The position numbers were made by a program, and so were the translations under genes. DNA of 64,000 nt, from assembly GCA_022711175.1 (NCBI GenBank), contig JAKLFM010000008.1, positions 1 to 64,000 on the forward strand, written 5' to 3'. The notes beneath the pieces are model-generated. The model did no database searches, had not been told where the DNA came from, and was given only the letters and a program-made list of their open reading frames with translations. Shown piece by piece: positions 11,231 through 29,529 of the stretch (within the stretch, counting starts at the first letter, position 1; each line of letters begins with the position of its first letter). Source of the stretch: Bacteroidota bacterium. GTDB taxonomy: Bacteria > Bacteroidota > Bacteroidia > Bacteroidales > UBA4417.

Positions 11231-12238
11231 ATGAAATACAGGCAATTAGGGAATTCGGGCTTATATGTTTCGGAACTTTGTTTTGGAGTCATGACATTTT
11301 CTGGAGAGAATCCTGACGAAAAAGGTTCGACAGATCAGAAACATGCAGATGAATTGATAAGTAGGGCGTTGGGCCTTGGCATTAATTTTTTTGATACGGC
11401 TGATGTTTATGCCGGTGGACAATCGGAGATCCTTCTTGGCAAAGCGCTGGGCAGCAGACGAAAAGATGCGGTTGTGGCGACAAAAGTCCGTTTTGCTATG
11501 AGCGATAATCCTAATGACTGCGGCCTGTCAAGGCACCATATCATCGAGGGTTGCCATGCCAGCCTGAAGCGGCTCGGAACCGATTATATAGACCTTTACC
11601 AGATTCATAGCTATGATCCGGGTACTCCGCTTGAAGAAACATTACGCACGCTCGATGACCTTGTGCATGGAGGAAAAGTCAGGTACATTGGTTGTTCTAA
11701 TCTCACCGCATGGCAAACGATGAAAGCACTGGCTATTTCTGATAAGCTGAACCTTGAAAAGTTCATCACGACGCAGCTTTATTATTCTATCGGCGCCCGC
11801 GACATCGAACAGGAACTGACGCCACTCTGCCTTGATCAGAAGTTGGGAATCCTTTGCTGGAGCCCGCTTTCAGGCGGTTTTTTCACCGGCAAATTCCGAA
11901 AGGACAAAGCTGCGCCTCAAGGTACGCGCCGAAGCGATCCGACTGCCAAAAGCATGAAATACTGGCCTGTGGATGAGGAGAAAGGATTTGAAATCGTAAG
12001 CCTGCTTGAAAAAATCGGGACAAAATACCAAAAAACCATCGCCCAGACTGCGCTCAACTGGTTGCTGCAGAAACTGGCTGTAAGTTCAGTCATTATCGGG
12101 GCCAGGAACCTTTCACAATTAAATGAAAATGTTGGAGCTTCCGGCTGGAAACTTCAGGAAGAAGACATAGTACTGCTTGACGAAATCAGCGCACAACCGC
12201 TTCGCTATCCGATGTGGCACCAGAAATACTCAGATTAG
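11231..12238 (+). CDS. Aldo/keto reductase
   Basis: A 335-residue NADPH-dependent aldo/keto reductase. All four catalytic-tetrad positions are visible: Asp and Tyr in FFDTADVY, Lys in VVATKVRF and His in LYQIHSYD. The C-terminal cofactor-binding segment SSVIIGARNLSQLNEN is present. The closest characterised proteins are YajO/YghZ-like reductases of aldehydes and ketones; the physiological substrate cannot be told. It is transcribed alone, convergent to the FTCD gene with a gap of only about 30 bases and no visible terminator. The region 11055-11230 upstream contains an AT-rich TAATTTTA (11188-11195) that may be a degenerate -7 element. Confidence 0.9.
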   Translation: MKYRQLGNSGLYVSELCFGVMTFSGENPDEKGSTDQKHADELISRALGLGINFFDTADVYAGGQSEILLGKALGSRRKDAVVATKVRFAMSDNPNDCGLSRHHIIEGCHASLKRLGTDYIDLYQIHSYDPGTPLEETLRTLDDLVHGGKVRYIGCSNLTAWQTMKALAISDKLNLEKFITTQLYYSIGARDIEQELTPLCLDQKLGILCWSPLSGGFFTGKFRKDKAAPQGTRRSDPTAKSMKYWPVDEEKGFEIVSLLEKIGTKYQKTIAQTALNWLLQKLAVSSVIIGARNLSQLNENVGASGWKLQEEDIVLLDEISAQPLRYPMWHQKYSD

Positions 12239-12267
12239 AGTTATCTGTTGAAATAAACACCGTGATT

Positions 12268-13962
12268 TTACCTGATCTTTGATTCCACAATTTTCAGGAT
12301 TTCAGCTTCCCTATTCATAGTTTTTGACTGGATGTCAGAACCTTCTGAAAGTATTTGTTCCACAAAAGCTTTGTCTTTCAGTCCCGAAGCATTGATCTTC
12401 ACATTCAGGAAGGCGCCCATCACCGCCGAGCGGGCAGCCAGAGCACCTACACCCGCATCCGAGACAGAGTTTGGATTTCCTGTCTCTGCCATCGCCCGGA
12501 TCACCTCCATGCTTTCGAACGACTTCTTCATCACCCTGAACGGGATTTCAATGGCATAACGTGTAGCTTCCTGAATGGCATGATCGCGGGCAGCTTTCTC
12601 GGTATCACTGCCTTTGGGTAGTCCTAAAGCGTCCATAATCCGGTTGAATGCCCTGGTGTCTTCATCGATGAGGAAAAGCAGTTCATCCTTTATCTGCTGC
12701 CCTTTATCGGCCCAGTTGCTGAATTCTTCCCAGCGGTTGTCCCAGCCGGGTTTGTGGCTCGACAAATTTGCTACCATGGTAGCCAGCGAGATGCCAAAGG
12801 CGCCCATGGCTGCCGAAACCGATCCGCCACCTGGAGCAGGTGATTCGGAAGCTGTTTCATCGGCAAAACCGGCAACAGTAAGATCGACAAGTTTTTTTTG
12901 AGAATGATCGGCCAACAGGTATTCGATGATTTTTTCCTTGGGATTGAACGGCTTCAGATCATCAAGGCCAAGCGACTTGACGGCAATTTTCACCAGTTCG
13001 GCTTCCGACACGCCCACTGAGCGTTGTTGCTTGCGAAGGAAATATTTTCCGGCATCCAGCATCGCTTTCAAAGGTATCAACCCTACAAGTTCCGACCCTG
13101 TGACCCGCAAACCACGTTCCTGCGCTTTTTTACAGGCTTCCTCAAAGGCAACATGAACCGGTGTAATGCTGATATTTGTAAGGTTGATTGAAACTTGTGC
13201 GATTCCGTATTCCTCGATATACCAGCCAATGGCTTTGCATGCTTTCAGCGAACCGGAAATCCAGATTTCGTTACCATTTTCATCTCTCTTAATTTTCCCT
13301 GTCACGGTGTTACCTTCGCGTACGGGGCGGCCTTTCTCACGAATATCAAAGGCAACAGCATTCGCGCGACGGGTCGAAGTTGTGTTGAGATTTACATTGT
13401 ATGCCACCAGGAAATCGCGTGCGCCAACTGCAGTAGCGCCTGTCACAGCAACTTTTTCGTTGAATTCGGCCGGGCCAAAGTCAGGTTTCCAGTGGGGGTC
13501 AGCAAGTTTTTTTGCCAGTCCTTCGTACTCACCCGAGCGGTTGTTGGCTAAATTTCGGCGTTCCCCGGTGAAAGCCGCGTTTTCATAGCAATACACAGGA
13601 ATCCCCAACTCACTGCCGATCCGCTCAGCCAGCCTGCGGGCATAAGCCACCGTTTCTTCCATGGTGATGCCTGCCACAGGGACCAGCGGACAAACATCGG
13701 TTGCCCCGAAGCGAGGATGCTCCCCTTTGTGGAAGCGCATATCGATCACTTCCGAAGCTTTTTTCACAGCCTGGAAGGCAGCTTCTATGACTGCATCCGG
13801 TTCACCTACAAACGTCACAACGGTGCGGTTGGTAGCAGCGCCCGGGTCAACATCCAGCAACCTTACGCCTTCAACGGCTTCAACCTGGTCGGTGATCTGT
13901 TTGATAACGGCCATATTGCGGCCTTCGCTGAAATTGGGAACACATTCGATGAGTTGTTTCAT
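12268..13962 (-). CDS. ftcD: Bifunctional glutamate formimidoyltransferase / formimidoyl-THF cyclodeaminase
   Basis: A 564-residue fusion of two folate enzymes, arranged as in mammalian FTCD. The N-terminal formiminotransferase (about 1-300) opens with MKQLIECVPNFSEGRN and contains HKGEHPRFGATDVCPLVPV. The C-terminal cyclodeaminase (about 350-564) contains ESPAPGGGSVSAAMGA and a helical bundle. Together they move the formimino group of N-formimino-L-glutamate (the product of histidine breakdown) to tetrahydrofolate and release ammonia, giving methenyl-THF. Other hut genes are not nearby. A clear -7 element lies upstream at 14009-14016. A diverged copy of its first ~80 codons plus the promoter lies at 21758-22085, so this locus has been a donor or paralog in a rearrangement. 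Confidence 0.95.
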   Translation of the reverse strand: MKQLIECVPNFSEGRNMAVIKQITDQVEAVEGVRLLDVDPGAATNRTVVTFVGEPDAVIEAAFQAVKKASEVIDMRFHKGEHPRFGATDVCPLVPVAGITMEETVAYARRLAERIGSELGIPVYCYENAAFTGERRNLANNRSGEYEGLAKKLADPHWKPDFGPAEFNEKVAVTGATAVGARDFLVAYNVNLNTTSTRRANAVAFDIREKGRPVREGNTVTGKIKRDENGNEIWISGSLKACKAIGWYIEEYGIAQVSINLTNISITPVHVAFEEACKKAQERGLRVTGSELVGLIPLKAMLDAGKYFLRKQQRSVGVSEAELVKIAVKSLGLDDLKPFNPKEKIIEYLLADHSQKKLVDLTVAGFADETASESPAPGGGSVSAAMGAFGISLATMVANLSSHKPGWDNRWEEFSNWADKGQQIKDELLFLIDEDTRAFNRIMDALGLPKGSDTEKAARDHAIQEATRYAIEIPFRVMKKSFESMEVIRAMAETGNPNSVSDAGVGALAARSAVMGAFLNVKINASGLKDKAFVEQILSEGSDIQSKTMNREAEILKIVESKIR

Positions 13963-14008
13963 ATCTTATTGAATATCATTGTATTAATCAAAGAAACCAA
14001 TCGTGGCG

Positions 14009-14016
14009 CAAAGGTA
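14009..14016 (-). promoter_or_regulatory. Bacteroidota-type -7 element of ftcD
   Basis: On the minus strand TACCTTTG fits TAnnTTTG exactly and lies about 47 bases before the ftcD ATG. The same element, with its flanks, is preserved in the partial copy at 22043-22050, which supports a functional role. Confidence 0.6.
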
Positions 14017-14234
14017 GCAATATTAGCAAGACTGGAAATCCAGATTTTTCGACATTAAATACTGGATGGAATTAAATGGTTTACATACAGGAATCGGTTG
14101 ATCCAGATTAAAAAATCTTCGGAGAAAAATCTATTTGCAATTAGCAAAGCACCAACATGGTAAAGATTGCAAATCTGCATCAGCTATGGAGAATGATAAC
14201 AGTCGCCTTTGATCTCCGATCTGTTTCGTCCAGG

Positions 14235-14801
14235 ATCTGTGACCGAGTATGGTTTGAGGCGCTGCTTTTCATGAAGGCGATACTCTCAGTCATACGAACA
14301 ATCGTATTGTCAGCCGGTACAAAAGCATCTGCACCGAAAACAAACCCGCATAACTTCATATCGAAACCACTGTTTTTGTTGCCAGAGATGCCGGTTTTCG
14401 GAACGGGCCTGTTAGTCACGGATACAAAGCTACTCGTCATCAGGTCTGACCTTCGGGTTTTAATGTCGAAGTCAGCGGCTTTAAAAACAAAGCTGCCGGT
14501 TTTATAGTCGAATCTACCCGGCTTCAAAACAAAGCCTCCGGTCATCAGGACAAAGCTTTCTGTCAACAATACAAAGCCGCCGGTTTCTATAACAGAGATT
14601 GCGGTTTCTCAGTCGGAGCCGCCTGCCTTCAGGTCAGGAGGTCAAAACATCAGGTCAGAGCCGTCGGTCATCAATACAAAGCTGCCGGTTTTTAAAACAG
14701 GGATGGCGGCCGTCAGGTCAAAGCTGCCTGTCATCAAAACAATGACGCCAGCGCCGGCCACAAAGTTGCCGGCATTAGAAATAAAGCTTCCGCCCGCTGA
14801 A
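14235..14801. repeat. Degenerate 21-bp tandem array (about 20 clear plus 7 faded units)
   Basis: From 14382 to 14801 the sequence divides cleanly into 20 consecutive 21-base units that commonly begin ACAAAGC, have GCCGG near the middle and end in TCAAA, TCAGG or similar. The register never slips: unit starts at 14424, 14487 and 14781 are exact multiples of 21 apart. To the left, to about 14235, the same register continues in fainter form. Because 21 is divisible by 3, both strands show open stretches. On the minus strand (14180-14569 is stop-free) it reads as a seven-residue repeat of the type x-F-V-x-K-T-G. Farther right the same minus-strand frame is broken by TGA codons. It may be a decayed repeat gene or a non-coding minisatellite. 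Confidence 0.75.
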
Positions 14802-14819
14802 AAATGCCGCTATACATAC

Positions 14820-14898
14820 TGACAACACTGTTTGCCATACTTACCAGCCCGGCATATCATCAGCCAAAGCCGGCTGCCTGCCTGATGGAGTGTTGTCA
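14820..14898. repeat. Inverted repeat with GC-rich interior next to the 21-bp array
   Basis: TGACAACACT at 14820-14829 is exactly complementary to AGTGTTGTCA at 14889-14898, with a smaller internal pair (AGCCCGGC with GCCGGCT-like bases). It abuts the end of the tandem array. It has no T run, so it is not a typical terminator. The remaining 14899-15165 shows no gene; it ends in the AT-rich leader of the C25 gene. Confidence 0.45.
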
Positions 14899-15165
14899 AC
14901 TTATGCACTCTCCGTATGTCTGATTGTATATGGCATTCATTTTTTATACAGCAGTTTTAGCTCCAGTAACAACTTCGCTTCGTGATTGAAATAAACGAAA
15001 GATTCATCCTACAGGCTTGTTTATTATCCCACACAAACTGTTTGTTGATTGAAATGAATCATGGACCCTGTTTGCAAAATTGAAAGAAATTATAGTTGAA
15101 TCCAATCTGTTCGTTAAAAACGGTAATAAATAAGTTATATTTACCTAATTTAAATCTTTGAAGCT

Positions 15166-18100
15166 ATGAAACAAATTGTTTTTATTATTACCCTGATTAT
15201 CTGCTCATTGAATTCTATCTGCCAGATTAATCACTCCGAAAGATTTTCAATTTATGATTTTCTCATGCATGATACCCTATGCCCTGATAATCAAACATAC
15301 ACCTGCTTTCCGGCATCTCTTGAAGCGACGCTTTCTCAACCAGGGCAACCTGCATTACCAACGGTATCCATGAATTTTCTCATTCCTACTTCATGCATAA
15401 TTGATAGCATTGTAATTTCAGAGGAAGACACAATAAACATAACCTTGAACCATAAAATTTTCCCTTTTCAGCCGCCTGCCCCAAGTTGTAGCACTTGTCC
15501 TCCGGCAGGTTTTAGAAGTATGGATTCTTCAATATACTTTAGCAACTTGGTTTATCCTTCCGTTAACAACTGCTCATTTAGCGGATTTTGGCATAAAGCC
15601 CGGATTCTCACCGTCCAGATATGCCCCTTCAGGTACTATCCCTTGTCAAATAATTTGGTTTTAAATAATACAATGACCATCAATATTTATTACACGGAAA
15701 AAGAAGGAAGCGAGGCGACACAAAAGGTGAATATGACCAATAGTTTTTATTCTGAATTTACCACATCATTAAGCAAAATGGTTGAGAATCCTTCGTCAAT
15801 TGAAGAATTTGTAAAAGGAATTGAAGTTGTTGAATCCAAGCCTAAAGACATACCAAATTTGCCCACTTATGATTATGTAATAATTGCACCTTCTGCCTTC
15901 ATTATTACAACACCAATGAACACCTTTATTGAGTGGAAGAAAAAGAAGGGGATAGATATTGGTGCTATTTCATTAACTGATGCTTATAATTACGTGGACA
16001 CAAATAATATTAGCACTGACAATATTGGAAACGATAATACCAATTATCCTAATAATCAAAGCATTGCTGATAATGCCGCAAAATTGAGAATGTATTTAAA
16101 GGCCATATATGATAGTAGTGGTTGCAGGCAAATATTACTCGTTGGAGATCAGAACAGGATACCGGTTCGCAAATATTATGCACACCATAATCCGGATGCT
16201 ATTCCACCTGTAACTCCATCTTATGCTATTACCGACAAATACTACGCCGATTTCAACAGCGACTATGCGGTTGATGCAAATAATGACTGGGGAGAAATAA
16301 CTTCAATTTCAAGCCCTAGTATTGGTGATAAAGTTGACTGGTATCCTGAAGCTTATATTGGACGCATCCCATGTTCTACTGTTGATCAATTTGGCGTTTG
16401 GGTTGATAAGATTATCAATTACGAGACGAATCCCGGAAATGGTGATGCCTCCTACCTGAAACGGTTTGTTATAACTATGGCTGATGAGCCTCAAAAATAT
16501 ATATTAAACTACTTTCCATCTACATTAACCAATCTCAGTTTTTTTGATAAAACAGAATTTAAGGAATTACCTTATTATTACAGTTCTCCGCCCACTTCTC
16601 CATATGGACAGACTATTATTTCTTCACTTAATACTTCTCCGGCAGGCTGGTGGACATGGGACAACCATGGTGATCCCTATGATTTTTTAACAATGACTGA
16701 TAGTGTTCATAGATCCACAATTAGTTGGATTAATTCATCAGGTAGCTCTTATGGTCTTCTTAATTTGTCAAATTTAAATAAATACGGGATCATTTCTTCG
16801 AATTGCTGCCTTGTGGCAAATTTCGAGGCCGACGATAACATGTTAGATGCTTCCATCTTCAACAACCAGGGAGGATCTGTGGCATTTTCCGGTAATACCG
16901 ATGTAGGTTGGACCCTTTATGGGCAATCAAAGCTTTCCAAACTTTCTTCAATTCTTAATTCTTGCCATCAAGGCGGCGACCAGTCATTAACCCGTTTATG
17001 CGCGGCAGAATGGGAATGGTATAAATTAAAATCGTCATATGTAATCTATAATTACGAAACCTACCTCACCAACAATTTCTTCGGCGACCCTGATATGATG
17101 TATTACACCAAAGAACCGGTTAGAATTGATGCGGATTTATCATCACGACATATTGATGCCAGTGTCAATAATACTTATCAGGTAACCATTAATAACTTAC
17201 CAGGTGGCCGTCATGCAATCGTTTGTTTGTATAAACCGGCTGATGGACTGCAACCTGAATTCCAGGATACTATTGATGTAACTCAGGTAAATCATCAATG
17301 TGTTGCAACTTTCAATATTCCCGCCAATACGCTTAGTACAGGTATAATGTATGTAACTGCAACCTCTTTTGATATGATGCCTTTTATGGATGAAATCCTT
17401 ATTTCGCCGGGTTGCACAAAAAACAATAATGCTGAAACAATATTGGTGAATACTACCTATCCGGCCGGAAATCCTGTTTTTAAAGATCGTGATGTCATTG
17501 TAAAAGCCGGGGCAACACTAACAATATATGGTGAAGTATATTTTGTGCCGAATGCAAGGATTATTGTTGAACCCGGTGCGCGGCTGGTTGTTGATGGCGG
17601 TACAATAAGCGCCTCGTGTGAAGAGCTTTGGCAGGGTATTGAAGTTTGGGGTAATGCCACTCTTTCACAGGCACCTGCTTCAAATCAGGGTTGGGTTAAG
17701 ATGATCAACGGAGCCCTGATCGAAAATGCCAAAATAGGGGTAGCTACATACAGGAAGGATGGCCAGATTATCAATTATAATTATACCGGAGGGATTGTCC
17801 AGGCTTATAATACCACATTTCGAAATTGCAGCCATGGGGTAATGTTTTATCCATACGAAAACAGGAACCTGTTTGGCAGTATTTATGGCAATGTTTCCGG
17901 TTTCGGTAATTGTACTTTTGAAGTAAACAACAATTATACAGGTACTGATACAATTAAAAACATAGTATCGTTAGATCAGGTAAGGGGGGTGGATTTTGGC
18001 GCGTGTAAATTTGTAAATAACTACACATCAGCCATAGCTGATTCGATCACTGGTATTTATTCTTATAACAGTGGCTTTGGTGTCTATAGCCTGTGCAACA

Positions 18101-19998
18101 GCAACGTTATTCCCTGTGATGATACTACTCACAGCGAATTTAGCGGCCTGAAATACGGCATTAAAGCGATTAGCAGCGGGGTATTAAAGTATATCAAAAT
18201 TGATGACTGCTTGTTTTCAGACAATCTCAGGAGTGTGTATTTAAGTGGTATAACAGCGCCAAGTGTTAATAGAAATTTAATTACCACAAAAGTATCAACG
18301 TCTCAGGCTAATACTTCATGCGGCATTTATCTGAATAATTGTAACGGATATTCGGTCCAGGAAAATAAAATAACGGGCCATTATCCTTCAGGCATATTAG
18401 GTAATAGCTACGAAACCGGTATCGTTATCAACAACTCAGGCACTGACCCCAACGAAATTTATAATAATACCTTTACCGGACTGCAAAACGGCATCACCGC
18501 CCAGGACGATAACCGGGGGCTGGTATGCAAGTGTAATGATTACAAAAGTGTAAAAACTGACCAGAGTGTTCTGATAACCGGAGGCAGTAGTAATACAATT
18601 GGCATAGCTCTGTATCAGGGTGATTCTCTTTCGATTACTGGTCTTGCAGGAAATACATTTTCACAACGCAATCAGAGCAGTGGGACATATGATTTGTATA
18701 ACCAAGGGGCAAGATTCAAATATTACCATCATTCAAATACTCCAACTAAAAGGCTTAAACCAGAATACTTTAATAATAATTACGCGAAAGAATGGAATAC
18801 TTACTTCTATGATAAACAGACTTCCTGCCTATCTAAACTGAACAGTGGAGGTAGTGACCTTGAAGAAATGAAGGTTGAATTGCAATCAACTTCGACAAGT
18901 GTCCAACAGAAAGAAACTGAACTTCAGGCATTGGTAGATGGTGGAGCTACTGAGCAGACCACGGAAGATATTTTTTACAGTATTCCACCTGAAGCATTGA
19001 TGCTCCGTGATGAGTTACTGACTAAATCGCCTTACCTGAGCGATACCGTGATGCAATCGGCCGCTGCCAATGAGTTTGTGCTACCAAATGTTATGATCAG
19101 GGATATACTTGTAGCCAACCCACAATCCGCTTCAAGTGAGCCGGTACTTAATGAATTGGATAAACGCATTGAGCCGATGCCCGAGGATTTGTACAACCAG
19201 ATTTTAGATGCCGAATCGGCTTATTCTCCTTTCGAAATTCGCGAAATGGAACTGGCATCATTAAAAGCGAAACAATCCTGGTTGTTCAACTCAATTGTTG
19301 CGTATTATTTGAGTGATACCACGGGATCTCTCGGCGACAGTCTCAATGTTGCACTTCAAAATGCGCCATTTCCTGAAGGCAGGTATCTGCTTGCCTTAAA
19401 GCAGATGACTGAAAACGATACCATGGCCGCAACATCTACTCTACAGGACATCTCAACTTCATTCGAACTATCCAGTGAACAACAGGCAACACTTACCGAT
19501 TACCTGAACTATTTCGAAATACTTAAAGATATAAACAGAGATACCCTGCCTGGTACAAAAACAGATAGCACCCAAACTGCTTTCTTATTGGCTTTGATGG
19601 AAATTGTTAATGAATCGGTAAAGTCATACATTCGAAATATTCTAATTGCCAACGAGGTTATTACCTACGAAGAACCGTATTTATTTGCAGATGAATTAAA
19701 AGCCAGCCGCATTCGAAAACCAAATATTACCAAGAATGAAGAGGATGCAGTGCTGCAGATCAGCCCTAATCCAGCAACTGGATACTTTATTGTAAAATAC
19801 GACCTCAAAAATCAGATTGCACCTGCTGCAATAGAAGTTGTATCCATCCATGGCCAGGTGTTGCTCAAAAAACTGTTAAATAAAAACAGAGACCAATTTG
19901 TTGTTCCGTTAATAGGTTTTTCACCAGACATTTATATTGTCTCGATTAGAGTTAGAGAACAGGTGCTTGATAATTGCAGGTTAATAGTTGTTAAATAA
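15166..19998 (+). CDS. Gingipain-like C25 cysteine peptidase with beta-helix region and T9SS sorting domain
   Basis: A 1610-residue secreted protein. It has a signal peptide (MKQIVFIITLIICSLNSICQ), then a propeptide-like region. A peptidase C25 domain covers about residues 230-640: it includes ILLVGDQNRIPVRKYY, a catalytic His501 in WDNHGDPYD and a Cys pair 547-548 in SSNCCLVANF, of which Cys548 aligns best with the gingipain nucleophile. A right-handed beta-helix-type region follows (about 740-1190, starting near VIVKAGATLTIYGE, with EELWQGIEVWGNATL). Next is a helical, acidic stretch, and finally a T9SS type A domain (ISPNPATGYFIV to the terminal RLIVVK). It is likely a surface or secreted protease. 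A 55-bp piece of this gene (17618-17672) recurs at 21703-21757. Confidence 0.88.
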   Translation: MKQIVFIITLIICSLNSICQINHSERFSIYDFLMHDTLCPDNQTYTCFPASLEATLSQPGQPALPTVSMNFLIPTSCIIDSIVISEEDTINITLNHKIFPFQPPAPSCSTCPPAGFRSMDSSIYFSNLVYPSVNNCSFSGFWHKARILTVQICPFRYYPLSNNLVLNNTMTINIYYTEKEGSEATQKVNMTNSFYSEFTTSLSKMVENPSSIEEFVKGIEVVESKPKDIPNLPTYDYVIIAPSAFIITTPMNTFIEWKKKKGIDIGAISLTDAYNYVDTNNISTDNIGNDNTNYPNNQSIADNAAKLRMYLKAIYDSSGCRQILLVGDQNRIPVRKYYAHHNPDAIPPVTPSYAITDKYYADFNSDYAVDANNDWGEITSISSPSIGDKVDWYPEAYIGRIPCSTVDQFGVWVDKIINYETNPGNGDASYLKRFVITMADEPQKYILNYFPSTLTNLSFFDKTEFKELPYYYSSPPTSPYGQTIISSLNTSPAGWWTWDNHGDPYDFLTMTDSVHRSTISWINSSGSSYGLLNLSNLNKYGIISSNCCLVANFEADDNMLDASIFNNQGGSVAFSGNTDVGWTLYGQSKLSKLSSILNSCHQGGDQSLTRLCAAEWEWYKLKSSYVIYNYETYLTNNFFGDPDMMYYTKEPVRIDADLSSRHIDASVNNTYQVTINNLPGGRHAIVCLYKPADGLQPEFQDTIDVTQVNHQCVATFNIPANTLSTGIMYVTATSFDMMPFMDEILISPGCTKNNNAETILVNTTYPAGNPVFKDRDVIVKAGATLTIYGEVYFVPNARIIVEPGARLVVDGGTISASCEELWQGIEVWGNATLSQAPASNQGWVKMINGALIENAKIGVATYRKDGQIINYNYTGGIVQAYNTTFRNCSHGVMFYPYENRNLFGSIYGNVSGFGNCTFEVNNNYTGTDTIKNIVSLDQVRGVDFGACKFVNNYTSAIADSITGIYSYNSGFGVYSLCNSNVIPCDDTTHSEFSGLKYGIKAISSGVLKYIKIDDCLFSDNLRSVYLSGITAPSVNRNLITTKVSTSQANTSCGIYLNNCNGYSVQENKITGHYPSGILGNSYETGIVINNSGTDPNEIYNNTFTGLQNGITAQDDNRGLVCKCNDYKSVKTDQSVLITGGSSNTIGIALYQGDSLSITGLAGNTFSQRNQSSGTYDLYNQGARFKYYHHSNTPTKRLKPEYFNNNYAKEWNTYFYDKQTSCLSKLNSGGSDLEEMKVELQSTSTSVQQKETELQALVDGGATEQTTEDIFYSIPPEALMLRDELLTKSPYLSDTVMQSAAANEFVLPNVMIRDILVANPQSASSEPVLNELDKRIEPMPEDLYNQILDAESAYSPFEIREMELASLKAKQSWLFNSIVAYYLSDTTGSLGDSLNVALQNAPFPEGRYLLALKQMTENDTMAATSTLQDISTSFELSSEQQATLTDYLNYFEILKDINRDTLPGTKTDSTQTAFLLALMEIVNESVKSYIRNILIANEVITYEEPYLFADELKASRIRKPNITKNEEDAVLQISPNPATGYFIVKYDLKNQIAPAAIEVVSIHGQVLLKKLLNKNRDQFVVPLIGFSPDIYIVSIRVREQVLDNCRLIVVK

Positions 19999-20003
19999 TT
20001 GGT

Positions 20004-20047
20004 AAGGCTTCTGTGTATGTTTTTACACAGGAGCCTTTAATTTTCTT
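20004..20047 (+). terminator. Intrinsic terminator between the two large T9SS genes
   Basis: Arms AAGGCTTCTGTGTA (20004-20017) and TACACAGGAGCCTT (20024-20037) form a 14-bp stem with one T-G pair and a 6-base loop, followed by a T-rich tract. The next gene begins only a few bases later, so that gene needs either readthrough or an internal promoter. Confidence 0.75.
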
Positions 20048-20052
20048 TTATC

Positions 20053-21624
20053 ATGAAAACATTTTTGTTTGTAATTTTAATACTCTCTGGCCAGTTCGTT
20101 TACGCCCAATCCTGGCTACGATATTACGGCCAGGGGCAAAACGCTATCGCCTGGAATGTAACTGAACAATACGACAAAGGCTACCTGATTGCAGGAAGTA
20201 TAAATTTATCAACTTATTCCTGGTTAGTAAAGACTGATGTAAATGGCAATGTGCTATGGGATAAAAAGTTTGGTAACGGTAATTATATTACAGTTCTAAT
20301 GAATGTTGAACAAACAACTGATGGAGGTTTTATCCTATGCGGTTCATCACTGAAATTATCATCTAATGATGCATTTATAATCAAATTAAATCCATGTGCC
20401 GAAGTTGAGTGGTGTAAAATACTTGAAGTGCCAAATAATTTTGAAAATGGCATTAAAGTAAAGCAGTCGTCTGACGGGGGATATATAGTGTTGACTGCCT
20501 ATTATCCAACCACCCCCGAATCCAATATTTCGTTGTTTAAATTTAACTCTACAGGTGATCTTGTATGGCGTCAATTCTATCCTCATGCTAATTATTATAA
20601 TGATGACCAACCATGTGATCTCTTGACTGACGGTGATGGATACCTTATAACTGCTTCACGCTATGCACCCGATTCAGGCACAAATTCACCTCAGATTATT
20701 AGGAGCTACTTTGTTAAAACCGATACTGCCGGGAATAAAATATGGGACCTGGTTTATGGCACCAATAACCATTACTATAGCGATGTTTGGGAAACAACTA
20801 AAAATAGTAAAGATAAATATTATCATTCCTGCACCCATTCAGCTACAAATGGAACAAATCCCGGGCTTATCTGGATCAGCCATAACGGGAGCGAGTCAGG
20901 AGATAAGGATATTTTTGAAACCGGTAGTCCAAATTTCTGTGGACTTTCAACCATCACAATGCTTCATGATACAAACCTGGTGTTCTTTGGAGGTTTCACC
21001 ATCAATGACACTTTCCAGTGGCAAGCCCTTAAAACTGATACAATAGGCAATATAATCAAGTCCAGTAGTATTCCTGAAGTAATCGTTCATAGCTCCACAA
21101 CTAAAACTTTTGACGATAAATTTGTTACAGTTGGTGTGGACACTTATAACAATATATTTAGAATTGTCGCTTTAAAAGTCAACTCCAACCTGGAATACGA
21201 CAGCATATACACCCAACCCTTTACCTACGACAGCCTTTGCCCGCACCCCATTGTAAGCGATACCATAGACCCTGATTGTGATAACGTTTATGTAAGCGTA
21301 GATGAGCCTTTCAAAAAACCGGAAACAACTCAGTTAAAGGTATATCCAAACCCAACCGATAAATTACTAATAGTAGAGTTGCCCAAATACCTTGTGGTAA
21401 GCAATACAAGCGGCAATATACCTGCCACTACCATTTATCATCAATGGTCGTCAGCTATGCTGCAAGCTATTGATTTACAGGGGAAAGTTGTTATAAAGCA
21501 GGGAGTTACCAATACCGGCGTACCATTACAATTGGATGTTTCAAGGCTGCCGGCGGGGATGTACCAGTTCAGGTTGTTGTACCGGGGGAAACAGGCGGCG
21601 GGGAGCAAAGTGGTGGTGAAATAA
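20053..21624 (+). CDS. Secreted beta-propeller-like protein with T9SS sorting domain
   Basis: A 523-residue exported protein with a signal peptide (MKTFLFVILILSGQFVYAQ). The mature part contains repeated blades of the type W-x-x-Y-G, YDKGYLIAGS, LVKTDVNGNVLWDKKFG and TTDGGFILCGSS, spaced about 45-55 residues. These are typical of Bacteroidota beta-propeller surface proteins; their role is usually binding rather than catalysis. The C-terminus is a T9SS type A sorting domain (KVYPNPTDKLLIVELP, LQAIDLQGKVV, LPAGMYQFRLLYRG, ending KVVVK). It follows the C25 peptidase gene by 54 bases across a terminator-like hairpin. The ligand is unknown. Confidence 0.82.
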   Translation: MKTFLFVILILSGQFVYAQSWLRYYGQGQNAIAWNVTEQYDKGYLIAGSINLSTYSWLVKTDVNGNVLWDKKFGNGNYITVLMNVEQTTDGGFILCGSSLKLSSNDAFIIKLNPCAEVEWCKILEVPNNFENGIKVKQSSDGGYIVLTAYYPTTPESNISLFKFNSTGDLVWRQFYPHANYYNDDQPCDLLTDGDGYLITASRYAPDSGTNSPQIIRSYFVKTDTAGNKIWDLVYGTNNHYYSDVWETTKNSKDKYYHSCTHSATNGTNPGLIWISHNGSESGDKDIFETGSPNFCGLSTITMLHDTNLVFFGGFTINDTFQWQALKTDTIGNIIKSSSIPEVIVHSSTTKTFDDKFVTVGVDTYNNIFRIVALKVNSNLEYDSIYTQPFTYDSLCPHPIVSDTIDPDCDNVYVSVDEPFKKPETTQLKVYPNPTDKLLIVELPKYLVVSNTSGNIPATTIYHQWSSAMLQAIDLQGKVVIKQGVTNTGVPLQLDVSRLPAGMYQFRLLYRGKQAAGSKVVVK

Positions 21625-21702
21625 GAAAAGAAATGAATCGAAGCGAAATAAGAATTAGAAATAGAAGTCATGTAGCGCACGTGTTACAAAAGCGCGCGAG
21701 CG

Positions 21703-21757
21703 GTGAAGAGCTTTGGCAGGGTATTGAAGTTTGGGGTAATGCCACTCTTCCACAGGC
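21703..21757 (+). repeat. 55-bp copy of an internal piece of the C25 peptidase gene
   Basis: This segment is identical to 17618-17672 at 54 of 55 bases (T to C at one position). In the donor it encodes EELWQGIEVWGNATL of the beta-helix region. Here it is out of context, joined directly to the ftcD-derived block on its right. The sequence to its left (21625-21702) is unlike its neighbours and contains a GCGCGCGAGCGG tract. Confidence 0.9.
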
Positions 21758-22085
21758 CCTTTGTGATAGCGCATATCAATCACTTCCGAAGCCTTTTTCA
21801 CAGCCTGGAAGGCGGCTTCGATAACGGCTTCAGGTTCACCCACAAACGTCACGACAGTGCGGTTGGTAGCAGCCCCCGGGTCAACGTCGAGTAATCTTAC
21901 ACCTTCAACGGTTTCAACCTGGTCGGTGATCTGTTTTATAACGGCCATACTGCTACCTTCGCTGAAATTGGGAACACATTTGATGAGTTGTTTCATATAC
22001 TGTTGAATATCATTGTTTTAATCAAATTTACCAATCGTGGCGCAAAGGTAGCAATATTAGCGGGACTGGAAATCCTGATTTTTCA
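21758..22085 (-). pseudogene. Truncated diverged copy of the 5' end and promoter of ftcD
   Basis: On the minus strand this block copies the first ~80 codons of ftcD together with about 90 bases of upstream sequence (compare 13725-14050). By eye roughly 85-90 percent of bases agree and most coding differences are at third positions. The translated start MKQLIKCVPNFSEGSSMAVI is intact and in frame for about 80 codons, after which the frame runs into the copied C25 fragment and unrelated sequence. The gene is therefore a 3'-truncated relic. Synonymous-biased divergence suggests the source was a once-functional second ftcD rather than a fresh copy of the one at 12.3-14.0 kb. The -7 element at 22043-22050 is preserved. 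Confidence 0.85.
22043..22050 (-). promoter_or_regulatory. Copied ftcD -7 element upstream of the relic
   Basis: TACCTTTG on the minus strand, identical to the ftcD element at 14009-14016 and embedded in the same flank. It could still drive transcription of the relic toward the end of the T9SS propeller gene. Confidence 0.5.
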
Positions 22086-22181
22086 TGACAACGCTGATCC
22101 GAAAATTTCTCTATTGATTTATAACACTTTTTTTACTAAATTCGGCTATCTTAAACAATTGTTATAAATCGTTTACACCCA

Positions 22182-23246
22182 ATGCGTAAAACATTCAGGA
22201 TTATTGCGATAGCGCTGTTAATCCTCATTTTGTTCTATATCGGATTTTCGGTCATTAGCTGGAAAGTGCAGCCTGTAGCTGAAGCCGGAATTTTTATTGA
22301 ACGTACAGGCACAGCCATTGCCATGACCGGAGCTGGGGCTCGTATCGTGCAGGAGGTTGCGCTTCTTGAACAATTGCAGAAAACAGGCTGGATAAAGAAA
22401 CCCTGTTTTATCTCAGGCACGAGTTCCGGTGCACTTAACACTGTAATGCTGAATGCAATCCTTGCCAGGAAATTTTCCTGGGACCGTTACCATAACATTC
22501 TCTTTAACCTGAGAAGTGAGGACATTTTCACAAGAGATGGTAACAAGATTCCGCTTAATACTGACCCCCTTAATACGCTGCTCACTCGCACCATCAGGGA
22601 CAGCCTGGGTTTCGACAGCCTTGGCAGCCTGCCCTACCCGAGTTCAATTTCGATCACCGACATCCGCGTACTTCCTTTAGCAACAAGAACATACAGGATG
22701 AGCAATGTCAGGATGAATGGTGAAAGCGATCCTTCGCTCAGCCTGGTTGACGTACTGATGGCTTCCACGGCAATACCGGTGATATTTCCGCCGGCCCGGC
22801 TTGATATCGGCAAGCTTAAGCTTGTTACAACTTTTATCGACGGAGGTGTTGCCGAAGACCATATTCCTTATCAGGCTGTGATTCAATATGAAAAATATCG
22901 AGGCCTGGGAGTTGATACACTGATCATTATCAGCCGGAAATGTGATACTACATCACAACTCAGCAGTGAAATGGAGAGCCTCGGTGCAAAGGACAGGCAA
23001 TTATTTGAGAAAATCGGTATCAGGATCGAAAACATGGCCTATGAAGGCTTTATCAGGCAGATGAAAGCACTCCAGACGAATTACCCTGAACTGGCAGCAC
23101 ATACTTTTATTTATATTCCTGATTTTGAAGAGAATTTCCATCTGCTCGATTTTAACCAGATGAAAGAGCAATACGAAATCACAGCAAAATGGGCAAAATC
23201 CCACAAACCGGTTCCTTTGGATGAATACCTGGAAAATGTGAAATGA
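22182..23246 (+). CDS. Patatin-like phospholipase, membrane-anchored
   Basis: A 354-residue patatin-family acyl hydrolase. An N-terminal hydrophobic segment (residues about 6-26) suggests an inner-membrane anchor or uncleaved signal. The oxyanion-type loop is MTGAGARIV, the nucleophile elbow is ISGTSSG (G-x-S-x-G), and the second catalytic element is FIDGGVAEDH (D-G-G). These form the Ser-Asp dyad of patatins, which cleave fatty acids from phospholipids or other lipids. The canonical glycine-rich GGGxRG loop is altered (GAGARI). It is a single gene, downstream of the mosaic relic. The substrate and cellular role are not known. Confidence 0.82.
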   Translation: MRKTFRIIAIALLILILFYIGFSVISWKVQPVAEAGIFIERTGTAIAMTGAGARIVQEVALLEQLQKTGWIKKPCFISGTSSGALNTVMLNAILARKFSWDRYHNILFNLRSEDIFTRDGNKIPLNTDPLNTLLTRTIRDSLGFDSLGSLPYPSSISITDIRVLPLATRTYRMSNVRMNGESDPSLSLVDVLMASTAIPVIFPPARLDIGKLKLVTTFIDGGVAEDHIPYQAVIQYEKYRGLGVDTLIIISRKCDTTSQLSSEMESLGAKDRQLFEKIGIRIENMAYEGFIRQMKALQTNYPELAAHTFIYIPDFEENFHLLDFNQMKEQYEITAKWAKSHKPVPLDEYLENVK

Positions 23247-23595
23247 TTTTTCAAAGAGTCAAATGAAATCATTATGACATCTTTAGTTCGATTCACCATC
23301 ATTATTCGCTCTGTGAAACTCGGTGGCTTCTTTGTAGTCCCGATAACTTTCGGGATATGTGTAACAGCCATTTATAAAAGCTTAATTACAGCATAATCTG
23401 ATCATTATTCCGGCTTAATAAACCCAAGCATGCATTGCCTTTTTGGGTAGTTTATAGATTTGGCTCGTTATATCTTAACTGAAAATCACAATGTTAAATA
23501 TCCTAATTTTTACAAAAGTCCAGTTTCGGTTTCTGTCTCCCACCGGAATCCCTACCTTTATGCCTGAAATTTCCAAAGCATAACAATCTCAAACC
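23247..23595. other. Gene-free stretch with dispersed-repeat-like hairpin and GH97 promoter
   Basis: No gene is seen. At 23338-23355 TCCCGA and TCGGGA form a 6-bp hairpin around a 6-base loop, and the preceding sequence (about 23309-23333) resembles the short intergenic repeats common in Bacteroidota genomes. The right end holds a promoter-like element. Confidence 0.4.
23530..23560 (+). promoter_or_regulatory. Putative Bacteroidota promoter of the GH97 gene
   Basis: TTTC at 23530-23533 as -33 element, 19 bases, then TACCTTTA at 23553-23560, one base off TAnnTTTG. The ATG follows 35 bases later. Confidence 0.45.
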
Positions 23596-25572
23596 ATGCG
23601 TAATACATTAAAAATCACCCTACTGGCTGCATTAGCCCTATTGATCTCACAATCATTTGCTGCAAAAACAGAAAAGCCTGTGTTAACAGTTTCACCAGAT
23701 GGAAAAATCGTTATCAGCCTTACACTAGCAGAAACGCCCGTTATCTCTATCACATACGGCGGAGAGAGCATCCTTTCACCCTCAGCTCAAAGTCTTGATA
23801 TCCGTGAATTTCCCGCCGCTTATCAAAATCCGAAAATCAGGAAAATCATTACCCGTACGGTTGACGAGGTGATCATAGCACCGGTAGCCGAAAAACGTAG
23901 CAGCATCCCTGATCACTACAACGAAACCGAGGTCTGGTTCAGGAGCAACTGCGGCATCAGGCTGCGGGCATATAACGATGGCGCTGCCTGGCGTTTCATC
24001 ACCAAACTTCCTGATAGTGTGACCATTAATAATGAATCCCTTACTCTCTCAATGGCAAACTCCGACTCTCTATTCTTTGGAGAGGAAGACAATTTCCATT
24101 CGCACAGCGAAAGATTTTATCCCATTAAATCAGCAGCCGAAATCACCGGTAAACAGATGTGTGTATTGCCGGCCGTTTTCCGCAAAAGCAATGGCATTAT
24201 CGCAGCATTCACCGAAGCCGACCTGCTCGATTACCCCGGACTTTATCTTGGAGGAACCGCAGCAGGAACAGCCACATTTAAAGGGATTTTACCACAAGCC
24301 GCTGCCACTGAAAAAGTAAGCGACGACAGGCGAAGCTACCTCGTTGACACCCGGCATGACTATATTGCCCGCACCACCGGAACACGGGAATACCCGTGGA
24401 GGGTTTTCGGAATCAGTGCAAACGACGCCAAACTGCTTGAAAATGATATTGTTTACCGCCTTGGAAGTCCCTGTAAAATAAAAGAAACCGGGTGGATTAA
24501 GCCCGGCAAGGTTGCCTGGGACTGGTGGAACGACTGGAACATCTACAATGTGCCTTTCAAAGCCGGAATTAACACGGACACTTACAAGTACTACATTGAT
24601 TTTGCTTCAGCTAATAAGCTTGAAAATGTGATCTTCGACGAAGGATGGTCGGCGAACGACGACTTAGATAAAATAAATCCCGACATGGATATGGATGCAT
24701 TGTTTGCTTACGCGAAACAGAAAAATGTCAGGATCATTCTCTGGGTAACAGGGCGAGCCCTTCAGGATAAATTTTACGCCTCTCTCGACAAGTTCGAAAA
24801 ATGGGGATGTGCCGGCATTAAGATGGATTTCATGATTCGCGACGATCAGCGTATGGTTAACTTTTATGAGAAAGTAGCTTCCGAAACTGCCAAACGTCAC
24901 ATGCTTGCCGACTTTCACGGATCGTACAAACCAACAGGATTAAGCCGTACTTATCCGAACCAGCTTACCCGCGAAGGTGTAAGAGGCATGGAAAACGACA
25001 AATGGAGCGACGGCATCACTCCCGCACACGATTGTACGCTGCCTTTTACCAGGATGTTTGCCGGCCCGATGGATTATACTCCCGGAGCCATGATCAATGC
25101 TACGAAGAAGAACTTCACCATCTCCTGGAGTGAGCCCATGAGCCAGGGAACCCGCTGCCATGAGTTTGCCAAGTACGTCATATTCGAAAGTCCGTTGCAG
25201 ATGCTGTGCGATGCACCCACAAACTACATGCGTGAACCCGAAACGATGAAATTTCTTACACCAGTGCCAACAACCTGGGACGAAACCATTGGACTGGATG
25301 CAAAAATCGGGCACTATGTTGCCGTTGCCCGCCGGCACGGAGACATCTGGTATATAGGTACAATGACCGACTGGACTCCCCGAAGTCTCAATATCGATTT
25401 GTCATTCCTTGGAGAAGGAAAATATAAGCTCGAATGCTGGTACGATGGCCCGAATGCCGACCGCAAAGCCAGTGATTACCTCCTGGCTGAAAAGCAAGTT
25501 GACAAATCTTCAAAACTGAAGATTAACATGGCACCGGGCGGTGGGTATGTCGCCCGGATCACAAAACTTTAA
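23596..25572 (+). CDS. Glycoside hydrolase family 97, retaining alpha-galactosidase type
   Basis: A 658-residue secreted enzyme with a signal peptide ending near SFAAK. It has the GH97 layout: an N-terminal beta-sandwich, a TIM barrel (about 290-560, with KVAWDWWNDWNIYN and VIFDEGW), and a C-terminal beta domain. In GH97 the inverting alpha-glucosidases (SusB) carry a base Glu in the segment HE-x-x-x-PTG. Here that segment is DFHGSYKPTG, without Glu, while Asp411 in GIKMDFM sits where the retaining alpha-galactosidase BT1871 has its nucleophile. I therefore call it the retaining type; the exact sugar is inferred. It precedes another secreted enzyme by 46 bases and forms a likely two-gene operon. 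Confidence 0.85.
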   Translation: MRNTLKITLLAALALLISQSFAAKTEKPVLTVSPDGKIVISLTLAETPVISITYGGESILSPSAQSLDIREFPAAYQNPKIRKIITRTVDEVIIAPVAEKRSSIPDHYNETEVWFRSNCGIRLRAYNDGAAWRFITKLPDSVTINNESLTLSMANSDSLFFGEEDNFHSHSERFYPIKSAAEITGKQMCVLPAVFRKSNGIIAAFTEADLLDYPGLYLGGTAAGTATFKGILPQAAATEKVSDDRRSYLVDTRHDYIARTTGTREYPWRVFGISANDAKLLENDIVYRLGSPCKIKETGWIKPGKVAWDWWNDWNIYNVPFKAGINTDTYKYYIDFASANKLENVIFDEGWSANDDLDKINPDMDMDALFAYAKQKNVRIILWVTGRALQDKFYASLDKFEKWGCAGIKMDFMIRDDQRMVNFYEKVASETAKRHMLADFHGSYKPTGLSRTYPNQLTREGVRGMENDKWSDGITPAHDCTLPFTRMFAGPMDYTPGAMINATKKNFTISWSEPMSQGTRCHEFAKYVIFESPLQMLCDAPTNYMREPETMKFLTPVPTTWDETIGLDAKIGHYVAVARRHGDIWYIGTMTDWTPRSLNIDLSFLGEGKYKLECWYDGPNADRKASDYLLAEKQVDKSSKLKINMAPGGGYVARITKL

Positions 25573-25618
25573 CATAAAAGAAGTCAGAGAAATCCAGGTA
25601 ACACAACCTACGGCACCG

Positions 25619-27811
25619 ATGAAAAAAGTTGTTGCAATCACCTTGCTGACAATCCTGTTTTGTTCGGCAAAAGCCCAGGAAAAACCAGAAAGTATCCTGT
25701 CTCAGCTTCAGTCAAAACCAGCGTTTACATCGACCGAGGACTGGCTGATCAGCGGAAACGCATACAAAGCCGGAGTTTACAAAGGTTCCGGCCCGTATGA
25801 CCTGGTAATCACCAATGGGCTTATCGAGCGCTGTTTTCGCATAAGCCCTTCACTCGCTTGTTACAGTTTCCGCAACCATGCTACCGGACAGGAGATGATG
25901 AGGGCAGTTAAGCCTGAAGCCGGGATCACAATTGATGGGAAGGATGTTTTCGCCGGCGGCCTGAATGGCCAGTTTGAATACGGCTACCTGAAATATGAAT
26001 GGCTCGATACCTTTACTGCTGCCGGAGATTTCATGCTTGAAGGCTTTACGGTTAACGACATCAAGCCATACATGGAATGGAAACCTGTGAGGTGGATTCC
26101 CGACTATGTATGGCCTCCCAAAGGCAAAGAACTTACTTTTGAAATGGTTGGTTCAACTGCTGCCGCCAGGGACATTTCACTCCGGATTCACTACGAAATC
26201 TACGATGGCATTCCTTTGGTATGTAAATGGTTGGAAATAATCAACAAAAGCAGCAAACAAGTGTCTGTCGATAAAGTGAGCAGCGAAATACTGGCTGTTG
26301 TTGAGGAAGAAGTCTCTGTTGATAAGATGAACCAGTGGAAAACGCCAAACATATGCGTAACCAGCAACTACAGCTTTATGGGAATGACCGGCGCCTCAGC
26401 CGATAGGGTAACCAACTGGCTTACCGACAGCACATACACTTCTCAGGTGAACTATGAACGTAAAACACCCTGTCTGCTGGTTTGTAAGCCCCCAATTGGA
26501 CCCGGGGTGGAACTAGCACCAGGACAGCATTATACCTCTATTCGTGTATGGGAATTAATTTACGATTCCTATGACAGGGAAAGAAAAGGGCTCGCAGAGC
26601 GACGCTTGTACAGGACTGTTTCACCCTGGGTGCTCGAAAATCCTGTTTTCCTGCATCTTACTTCCACTGATCCTGAAGTTATCCACGAGGCAGTTGAGCA
26701 ATGCAAAAATACAGGCTTCGAAATGATTATCCTGAGCTTCGGAAGCGGCTTAAATATGGAAAGCAACGATTCTGCCTATATCCGCAAATTTAGAAACATC
26801 ACTGATGATTGCAACCGCAATGGCATCGAACTTGGCGGTTACTCACTGCTGGCAAGCCGCAGGATAAATGACCAGGAGGATGTTATCAACCCATCAACCG
26901 GAAAGACAGGCGGTGCTGTTTTCGGTAACTCACCCTGCCTTGAAAGTAACTGGGGCCGGCAATACTTCGAAAATCTTAGGCATTTCATCAATTCCACCGG
27001 GTTTTCATTGCTTGAGCACGACGGTTCATATCCCGGTGACGTTTGCGCCTCTCTGCAGCATCCGGGCCACAAGGGATTGAACGATTCCCAATGGAGACAA
27101 TGGGAAACGGTCACAGCTTTCTATGCATGGTGCCGAAGCAAAGATATATATCTGAACGTTCCCGACTGGTATTTCCTTGCAGGTTCAAATAAAACAGGGG
27201 TAGGATACCGTGAGACAAACTGGTCACTGCCGCGCGACAGGCAACTGGTGCTGGGCAGGCAGAATATTTACGACGGAACATGGGGAAAGACACCATCCAT
27301 GGGCTGGACATTCGTGCCACTGGTCGAATACCAGGGTGGAGGAGAGGCTGCAACTCTTGAACCGTTATCAGAACATCTGAAAGATTATGAAGCCCACCTG
27401 TTTCAGAATTTCGGGGCCGGGGTGCAGGCCTGTTACAGGGGATTCAGGTTGTATGATACGGAAGAAACGAGGCAAGTGGTCTCAAAATGGGTGGAATGGT
27501 ATAAAAAATACCGGCTTATTCTCAATTCGGACATCATTCACCTGCGAAGGGCCGATGGACGCGATTGGGACGGTTTTATGCACGTGAATCCTTTGCTTCG
27601 CGAAAAAGCCATGATCCTCCTGTTCAATCCGTTGAAGGAGGAAATTACCCGGCAAATCACTTTGCCATTGTACTATGCAGGCCTGAAGGGGAATGAAAAA
27701 ATCAGGGAGAAGGAAGGCAAGCCCTCACCCATCAGCCTGAATAACAAAAGCGAGGCATTTATTGAGGTGAAAATTCCTGCTGAGGGCTTTACGTGGCTTG
27801 TTGTCGAGTAA
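25619..27811 (+). CDS. Secreted glycosidase-like protein, family not assigned
   Basis: A protein of about 730 residues. From the ATG at 25619 it begins with a clean signal peptide (MKKVVAITLLTILFCSAKAQ); a longer frame from 25541 overlaps the GH97 gene and is not preferred. The N-terminal half is a beta-sandwich rich in aromatic residues. The C-terminal half looks like a TIM barrel with conserved acidic and aromatic clusters (FSLLEHDGSYPGDV, WSLPRDRQLVLGRQ, MGWTFVPLVEYQGGG). It resembles clan GH-D alpha-galactosidase-like proteins in overall organisation, but I do not see the diagnostic GH36 motifs. Context (GH97, then the fucose genes) suggests release of alpha-linked galactose or fucose. 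The catalytic acid pair could include the Asp residues of EHDGSYPGD. Confidence 0.6.
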   Translation: MKKVVAITLLTILFCSAKAQEKPESILSQLQSKPAFTSTEDWLISGNAYKAGVYKGSGPYDLVITNGLIERCFRISPSLACYSFRNHATGQEMMRAVKPEAGITIDGKDVFAGGLNGQFEYGYLKYEWLDTFTAAGDFMLEGFTVNDIKPYMEWKPVRWIPDYVWPPKGKELTFEMVGSTAAARDISLRIHYEIYDGIPLVCKWLEIINKSSKQVSVDKVSSEILAVVEEEVSVDKMNQWKTPNICVTSNYSFMGMTGASADRVTNWLTDSTYTSQVNYERKTPCLLVCKPPIGPGVELAPGQHYTSIRVWELIYDSYDRERKGLAERRLYRTVSPWVLENPVFLHLTSTDPEVIHEAVEQCKNTGFEMIILSFGSGLNMESNDSAYIRKFRNITDDCNRNGIELGGYSLLASRRINDQEDVINPSTGKTGGAVFGNSPCLESNWGRQYFENLRHFINSTGFSLLEHDGSYPGDVCASLQHPGHKGLNDSQWRQWETVTAFYAWCRSKDIYLNVPDWYFLAGSNKTGVGYRETNWSLPRDRQLVLGRQNIYDGTWGKTPSMGWTFVPLVEYQGGGEAATLEPLSEHLKDYEAHLFQNFGAGVQACYRGFRLYDTEETRQVVSKWVEWYKKYRLILNSDIIHLRRADGRDWDGFMHVNPLLREKAMILLFNPLKEEITRQITLPLYYAGLKGNEKIREKEGKPSPISLNNKSEAFIEVKIPAEGFTWLVVE

Positions 27812-27849
27812 CCAACGGTTTAAGCGCTTAAAGCGCAAATCCACAAGTC

Positions 27850-28671
27850 TTAATCAACCAGCAGCACTTTGTGAGAGGTGGCTACACCGTTTATTCTTAA
27901 TACGATGAAATAGATGCCTGAGGACATCCTGGAGTTATTCTCATTTTTCCCGTCCCATGTCAGTTCATAGCTGCCGGCTGTCAGCACGTCATTTGCCAAA
28001 ACTGCAATCATTTTGCCCGATTGATCAGTGACATACGCCTGCAATTGCGACGATTTTTGAAGTTCGAATCTCACTTTTACGCTTTCGCTGAAAGGATTCG
28101 GAAAAACGGAAATGTTAGAATTCCAGGCTATTGCTTCTTCTACACCAACACCATCGGGTACCCAGTCGAGTACGATATTGCTGAAGTAGGTCAGGTTGGC
28201 TGGTGTAAGGTGCAGAGATGATGTACTTTTTGTGAATTCGACCGACATATAAGGCCCGGCCGGCTGTCCGCTTGCCGAATTCTGGCTTGTATATTCTGCC
28301 CAAACCTGGTAAACGCCGTCAGCCATCAGGTTTCCTGAATAATCCTTTCCATCCCAGGTAATGGTATGGGTTTGATGCGTGGAGAGCGTTGCACCGGTAA
28401 TGGCATTGGTCGTATTGCCGCCTGAGTTGTTCTTCCACTTAACAAGATGCTGTTTTCTTGTATTGGCCATTACTTTGCATGATTTAACAAAGTTACCCTG
28501 GCTGTCCTTAATCCAGATTGCCAGCACATGCTTTGGCGAGTAACCTGTATTATTGCTTATGGTTTTAACAGTGAAGGTTGCCGTACCAGTGGTTGATTGT
28601 GCTGATAAGCAAGTTGTTGTAAAAAGCAGGATGAATGATAATGTAACTGGCAGCAAGAATTTATTGCTCAT
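27850..28671 (-). CDS. Secreted DUF2271/FlgD-like protein with T9SS-type C-terminus
   Basis: A protein of about 273 residues from the ATG at 28671 (MSNKFLLPVTLSFILLFTTTCLSAQ is the signal peptide; an upstream ATG at 28716 adds an unlikely 15 residues). The first half matches the DUF2271 pattern: KHVLAIWIKDSQGNFVKSC, then TITWDGKDYSGNLMADGVYQVWAEY, a predicted periplasmic or extracellular beta-sandwich. The C-terminus is a FlgD-Ig/T9SS type A domain (VFPNPFSESVKVRFEL, TWDGKNENNSRMSSGIYFIVL, ending KVLLVD). It is convergent to the glycosidase gene and divergent from the fucose operon. No catalytic function is evident. Confidence 0.75.
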   Translation of the reverse strand: MSNKFLLPVTLSFILLFTTTCLSAQSTTGTATFTVKTISNNTGYSPKHVLAIWIKDSQGNFVKSCKVMANTRKQHLVKWKNNSGGNTTNAITGATLSTHQTHTITWDGKDYSGNLMADGVYQVWAEYTSQNSASGQPAGPYMSVEFTKSTSSLHLTPANLTYFSNIVLDWVPDGVGVEEAIAWNSNISVFPNPFSESVKVRFELQKSSQLQAYVTDQSGKMIAVLANDVLTAGSYELTWDGKNENNSRMSSGIYFIVLRINGVATSHKVLLVD

Positions 28672-28693
28672 AATGAAGGTATTTTTTAAGTTG

Positions 28694-29472: not shown

Positions 29473-29529
29473 ATGCTCGCCCGGAACTCTCCGGTACAAA
29501 TACTAATACTAATTTACAAAACATTTATA

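What the first reader, a model, noticed from the sequence alone, without database searches (positions are those of the whole stretch)
14235..14801. A 21-bp tandem array in strict register with latent heptapeptide coding
At least 20 consecutive 21-base units keep exact phase from 14382 to 14801, fading out to the left. The minus strand reads as repeated x-F-V-x-K-T-G; a stop-free stretch (14180-14569) holds about 14 heptads, but further units on the same frame contain TGA. The unit is not a plain microsatellite and has no spacer structure. It may be a decayed repeat-protein gene, a protein-binding array or a minisatellite with a strain-variable copy number.
Basis: seen in the sequence. Interest (0 to 1): 0.6.

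Follow-up and report, generated by a model that had tools for sequence, protein, structure and literature searches.

The report
Orphan 21-bp phased DNA-repeat array
The repeat is real, and it is a partnerless, partly decayed copy of 21-bp DNA arrays found across the Bacteroidota phylum beside genes for an uncharacterised helical protein; their pattern of conservation suggests a protein-binding track along one face of the DNA rather than a protein gene.

Summary
In detail: about 24 units of 21 bp keep exact phase from about 14297 to 14800, far beyond shuffled sequence. The heptapeptide reading does not hold for this copy: its minus frame has two stops where 1.7 are expected without selection.

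Related arrays form a phylum-wide class. A gene for an all-helical protein ("21-AP", no Pfam or NCBIfam model for that domain) usually has a 21-bp array beside it, mostly upstream: 30 of 47 loci in the order at a strict cut-off and 9 of 10 elsewhere in the phylum, against 1 of 40 and 0 of 19 control loci. Unit sequences differ per locus; the period does not.

Over 39 arrays, conservation within the unit peaks at 10.5 bp (z about 8), one DNA turn, with nothing at 3 bp. There is no palindromy, RNA structure or similarity between half-units. The best reading is a directional protein-binding lattice on one DNA face.

The window copy lacks the partner gene, lies in a 7.7-kb segment absent from the nearest relative held, and shows little constraint itself. 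The binder and the cellular role are inferred, not shown.

The parts
14360..14800 (-). Core of the array, 21 units of 21 bp without indels; the sense strand (that of related arrays relative to their partner gene) is minus, consensus about GCAGCTTTGTCTTGAAGACCG
   Evidence: Lag-21 identity and unit table; same-sense similarity to arrays on C21, C5 and G015:C100, none in the opposite sense
14297..14359 (-). Three degraded units, the fading left edge of the array
   Evidence: Unit table and model hit 14298-14357, E .002
14051..21756 (.). Accessory 7.7-kb segment that carries the array; absent from the closest relative held, G004
   Evidence: Blastn: in G004 the matches to window 11370-14050 and 21757-30000 share one 328-bp stretch and nothing lies between
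13723..14050 (-). Left flank: 5' end of the intact FTCD gene plus leader, one copy of a 328-bp direct duplication
   Evidence: Self-blast 89 percent; 92 percent to G004
21757..22084 (-). Right flank: second copy, a truncated FTCD start (about 81 codons); the native upstream region continues from here

Best explanation
The feature is an orphan, partly decayed member of a Bacteroidota-wide class of 21-bp direct-repeat DNA arrays that normally sit beside, mostly upstream of, a gene for an all-helical protein (called 21-AP here). Shown by computation: the association, the fixed 21-bp period with locus-specific units, and a conservation pattern with two different, non-palindromic cores about one helical turn (10.5 bp) apart in each unit, so that the conserved cores of an array lie on one face of the DNA. 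Inferred: a protein (the neighbouring 21-AP or a partner specific to the locus) binds the units directionally as a lattice, and so controls the adjacent gene or marks the site as a nucleoprotein landmark. In the window the array lies in a 7.7-kb accessory segment, has no 21-AP gene beside it, and appears to be drifting.
For: Array real. Related arrays by unit sequence in the same genome and by same-sense comparison (z 6.9, 4.6, 4.3). Association with 21-AP found by the protein alone: period 21 best in 46 of 47 loci of the order, 30 above .45 and 27 of these upstream, against 1 of 40 controls; 9 of 10 loci in other parts of the phylum against 0 of 19 controls. Helical phasing: 10.5-bp component z 8.2 over 39 arrays, 4.4 in the genus and 6.9 outside, 3-bp component z -2.3. 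Half-units unlike each other, composition not phased; no palindromy, no RNA fold. Arrays more conserved at synonymous sites than the adjacent gene. Orphan state: no 21-AP hit on the window contig or remnant in the window.
Against: The window array by itself shows weak column structure (P .085) and no clear 10.5-bp peak. Binding has not been shown, and 21-AP proteins are not notably basic and resemble only generic helical bundles. A few loci have no array, or one downstream, and two of the downstream ones are 7-bp repeats. The open frames in six genus arrays need a separate explanation. Period 11 (A-form RNA) cannot be told from 10.5 with a 21-bp unit.
Confidence: 0.6

Rival explanations
1. A decayed gene for a heptapeptide-repeat protein: the arrays encode a fast-evolving repeat protein made from one operon with 21-AP, and the window holds a pseudogene of it.
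For: In C17, C162, C15, C5, C24 and G015:C100 one sense frame is stop-free where 4.6-7.4 stops are expected (P .0055 or less each at period 21; three of these share ancestry), and it stayed open after divergence (P .005-.01). Shared F-V-x-x-T/A motif; in C90 and G015:C100 the frame runs into a longer ORF with a common C-terminal stretch.
Against: No third-position excess and dN close to dS, with low dS; no 3-bp component in column conservation; pLDDT 28 from a 4-row alignment; frameshifts in the C1 copy; outside the genus 13 of 20 arrays have no stop-free sense frame and 9 have stops in all six. In the window 2 stops against 1.7 expected.
Confidence: 0.15
2. A neutral minisatellite made by slippage, kept by nothing; the 21-bp length and the position next to 21-AP genes are accidents of a mutational hotspot.
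For: Units of the window copy are diverged, with little column structure; orphan arrays occur elsewhere in G004.
Against: The period is always 21 while sequences are unrelated; association against controls; strong column heterogeneity and 10.5-bp phasing in most arrays.
Confidence: 0.15
3. A BrickBuilt-like MITE: a mobile element whose body is a tandem repeat.
For: The array lies in an accessory segment; two G004 arrays abut what look like transposon ends.
Against: No plausible terminal inverted repeats around the window array. BrickBuilt has one shared 23-nt unit with leader and tail (PMC4596501), whereas here units differ per locus and the period is 21.
Confidence: 0.05

Closest known systems
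BrickBuilt minisatellite/MITE of Porphyromonas gingivalis (PMC4596501)
   Same: Intergenic head-to-tail array without spacers, many copies per genome, in the same phylum
   Different: 23-nt unit with one shared sequence, leader and tail with inverted ends, no partner gene reported in the passages read; here 21 bp, unit differs per locus, partner gene, no inverted ends
Plasmid iterons and centromere-like direct-repeat arrays (general knowledge, no test here)
   Same: Directional repeats of about two helical turns beside a gene, read by a protein from one DNA face
   Different: Those belong to replication or partition genes; 21-AP resembles neither by Pfam, and no copy was found on 72,556 plasmids
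TAACTGA heptamer direct repeats (PMC4679880)
   Same: Intergenic tandem repeats, unit length dividing 21, many near start codons, a few cases in Bacteroidetes
   Different: A fixed 7-bp sequence, mostly 2-6 copies per set; here a 21-bp unit with no common sequence and no 7-bp sub-period in the window array

Membership tests
21-bp array class defined here (array beside a 21-AP gene) | Head-to-tail 21-bp period without spacers over many units | tested here: met
21-bp array class defined here (array beside a 21-AP gene) | Unit related to arrays that do sit beside a 21-AP gene | tested here: met
   Same-sense z 4.6 to C5 and 4.3 to G015:C100; model hit to C90, E 3e-5
21-bp array class defined here (array beside a 21-AP gene) | 21-AP gene adjacent | tested here: not met
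   No hit on the contig and no remnant in the window; hence 'orphan'
21-bp array class defined here (array beside a 21-AP gene) | 10.5-bp phased conservation in the copy itself | tested here: inconclusive
   10.5-bp share .18, column heterogeneity P .085
Protein-coding heptad repeat | Frame kept open beyond chance in this copy | tested here: not met
   2 stops against 1.7 expected on minus, 1 against 1.5 on plus
BrickBuilt MITE | 23-nt unit | tested here: not met
   Period 21
BrickBuilt MITE | Terminal inverted repeats around the array | tested here: not met
   Only two short pairs: one joins the two gene starts, one has an arm inside the array
CRISPR | Constant repeats with unique spacers | tested here: not met
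   No spacer structure; units are contiguous
Iteron or partition array | Bound by the product of the adjacent gene; acts in replication or partition | not testable with these tools
   Needs binding and stability assays

The most novel reading that the evidence does not exclude
Bacteroidota carry a so far undescribed two-part locus: a fast-diverging 21-bp DNA lattice and a helical protein that reads it, each locus with its own 'address', multiplied within genomes (12 copies in G004) as a set of orthogonal protein-DNA recognition systems.
Probability: 0.3. Interest if true: 0.85.

Novelty: new variant of a known kind. Interest (0 to 1): 0.6.

Why it matters
A phylum-wide pairing of a fixed-period DNA array with an unnamed protein family is unusual: the period is conserved while the sequence is not. 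If each protein recognises its own array, this would be a natural library of orthogonal DNA-binding systems in a phylum that is important in gut and marine habitats. It also warns that heptapeptide ORFs called over such arrays may be annotation artefacts.

Tried and rejected
Rfam: only a chance-level hit. Pfam and NCBIfam on the heptad ORFs: nothing significant. Blastn of the array in 60 relatives and in phages: no match beyond itself. A link of the array to the C25 peptidase: homologues in G011 and G014 have no 21-bp array in the flank fetched (only about 360-640 bp of upstream DNA existed for G011). Structured RNA and palindromic sites: not supported. Phased A-tracts: not supported. Foldseek and VIA-align on the 21-AP model: only generic helical bundles, no E below .001 and Z below 9; the list includes an S23-family chain at Z 8.2, which is no evidence at this level. 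Mantel test of protein against unit similarity: r .20, P .01, compatible with co-evolution but equally with plain linkage. 21-AP on plasmids and phages: none. MAFFT of overlapping units slid out of register and was discarded. Literature searches found no description of these arrays; the library lacks most subscription journals.

Full report
Observation. The array is real. Lag-21 identity is .44 over 14171-14830 against about .25 elsewhere. The best 300-bp window scores .54, where thirty Markov sequences of 64 kb never passed .375 for any period. About 24 units follow one another without an indel from 14297 to 14800, clear from 14360 on.

Setting. The window is part of a 70-kb contig of a 3.6-Mb draft genome. 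Its order contains a genome whose public record is labelled Bacteroidales. The array lies between an intact FTCD gene and a gingipain-like C25 peptidase gene that ends in a T9SS sorting domain. Against the closest relative held, G004, the window has a 7.7-kb extra segment (14051-21756), flanked by a 328-bp direct duplication of the FTCD start; the native upstream region continues at the right copy. The array lies inside that segment. No other genome searched matched the array by blastn.

Relatives. A sequence model of the array found related arrays on contigs C21 and C90 of the same genome, and a pattern match led to another on C5. C5, C90, C162 and several G004 loci had the same neighbour: a protein of about 310 residues, called 21-AP here. 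Its helical domain of about 210 residues has no Pfam or NCBIfam model; many members carry a C-terminal CarboxypepD_reg domain. There are 6 copies in G000 and 12 in G004. AlphaFold gives a confident all-helical model (pLDDT 95) with no clear structural relative.

Association. Loci gathered by the protein alone were scanned for tandem periods. In the order, 21 was the best of periods 17-25 in 46 of 47 loci; 30 loci scored above .45, 27 of them with the array upstream. One of 40 control loci (FTCD and peptidase homologues) did so, and that was a low-complexity acidic ORF. Elsewhere in the phylum 9 of 10 loci had an array, against 0 of 19 loci that matched only the common CarboxypepD_reg domain. 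Distances to the gene were 78-518 bp in those nine. Unit sequences differ from locus to locus. In 800 kb of G004 there were seven 21/42-bp arrays, three near a 21-AP gene and one just upstream of a different ORF, so orphans are not rare.

Protein or DNA? Inside the genus, six arrays keep one sense frame open beyond chance, so some translation is likely there. But the best-aligned family shows no third-position excess while its 21-AP genes do. dN and dS are .20/.26.25/.26 and .28/.37 for arrays, against .23/.83.30/1.03 and .20/.81 for the genes, so array synonymous sites are about three times more conserved. The predicted product has pLDDT 28 (from only four sequences). Gene conversion between arrays could also lower dS and is not excluded. 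I read the open frames as leaders kept translatable ahead of the gene, not as a repeat protein; this is inference.

Helical phasing. For 39 arrays I took the conservation of each of the 21 columns and its Fourier components. The 10.5-bp component stands out (z 8.2; 4.4 in the genus, 6.9 outside); the 3-bp component is below expectation (z -2.3) and is the leading one in no array. The result holds for arrays of 12 or more units (z 8.0). A coding 72-bp repeat in the window, used as a control, does show a 3-bp signal (P .017 with only 3 units; a second one with 2 units P .11). Base composition is not phased and the two half-units are unrelated, so the signal is two different cores one turn apart, repeated every two turns: all on one face. 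There is no palindromy and no RNA fold. This is what a directional, sequence-specific protein lattice would leave. Which protein binds is not shown, and a period of 11 cannot be separated from 10.5 with this unit length.

The window copy. It shares unit and sense with C21, C5 and G015:C100 and has no 21-AP gene or remnant beside it. It shows no stop avoidance on either strand and weak column structure. It is best described as an orphan in decay; the class it belongs to is the interesting part.

Known kinds. BrickBuilt of P. gingivalis (PMC4596501) is the nearest described repeat found, but differs in unit length, shared sequence and transposon ends. TAACTGA repeats (PMC4679880) are a fixed heptamer. 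Iterons and centromere-like arrays resemble the layout from general knowledge, but membership was not testable. The literature search was limited to openly licensed papers.

Noticed in passing
window 13723-14050 and 21757-22084: 328-bp direct duplication of the FTCD 5' end around a 7.7-kb segment absent from G004; could be integration of a circle by recombination within FTCD.
   Followed up: partly
window 17618-17672 and 21703-21757: A 55-bp piece of the C25 peptidase gene is repeated (98 percent) exactly at the right junction of the extra segment.
   Followed up: no
window 37996-38310 and 39111-39763: 72-bp period inside two minus-strand ORFs, with a 3-bp conservation signal in one: probably a real 24-residue protein repeat.
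   Followed up: partly
L107, L109, L112, L115: Recurrent operon: XRE/ImmA-like gene, PIN-like gene, a small gene ending in a 'RPxLGxSPP' motif, then the 21-AP gene; looks like a toxin-antitoxin or stress module (names are my own reading; no Pfam hit for the middle genes).
   Followed up: partly
G004:C15:219268-220350 and G004:C24:173108-173834 (L156-L157, L181): Two 21-bp arrays end right at the same sequence, TTTTTTGGACACTCCC, next to a transposase gene in the second case; insertion elements may prefer these arrays.
   Followed up: no
G004:C15:322327 and G004:C24:72556: Two 42-bp-period arrays with nearly the same unit at distant sites, neither near a 21-AP gene.
   Followed up: no
G004:C15:407354-408512: A 21/42-bp array just upstream of a 224-residue ORF that is not a clear 21-AP; perhaps a second family that uses such arrays.
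   Followed up: no
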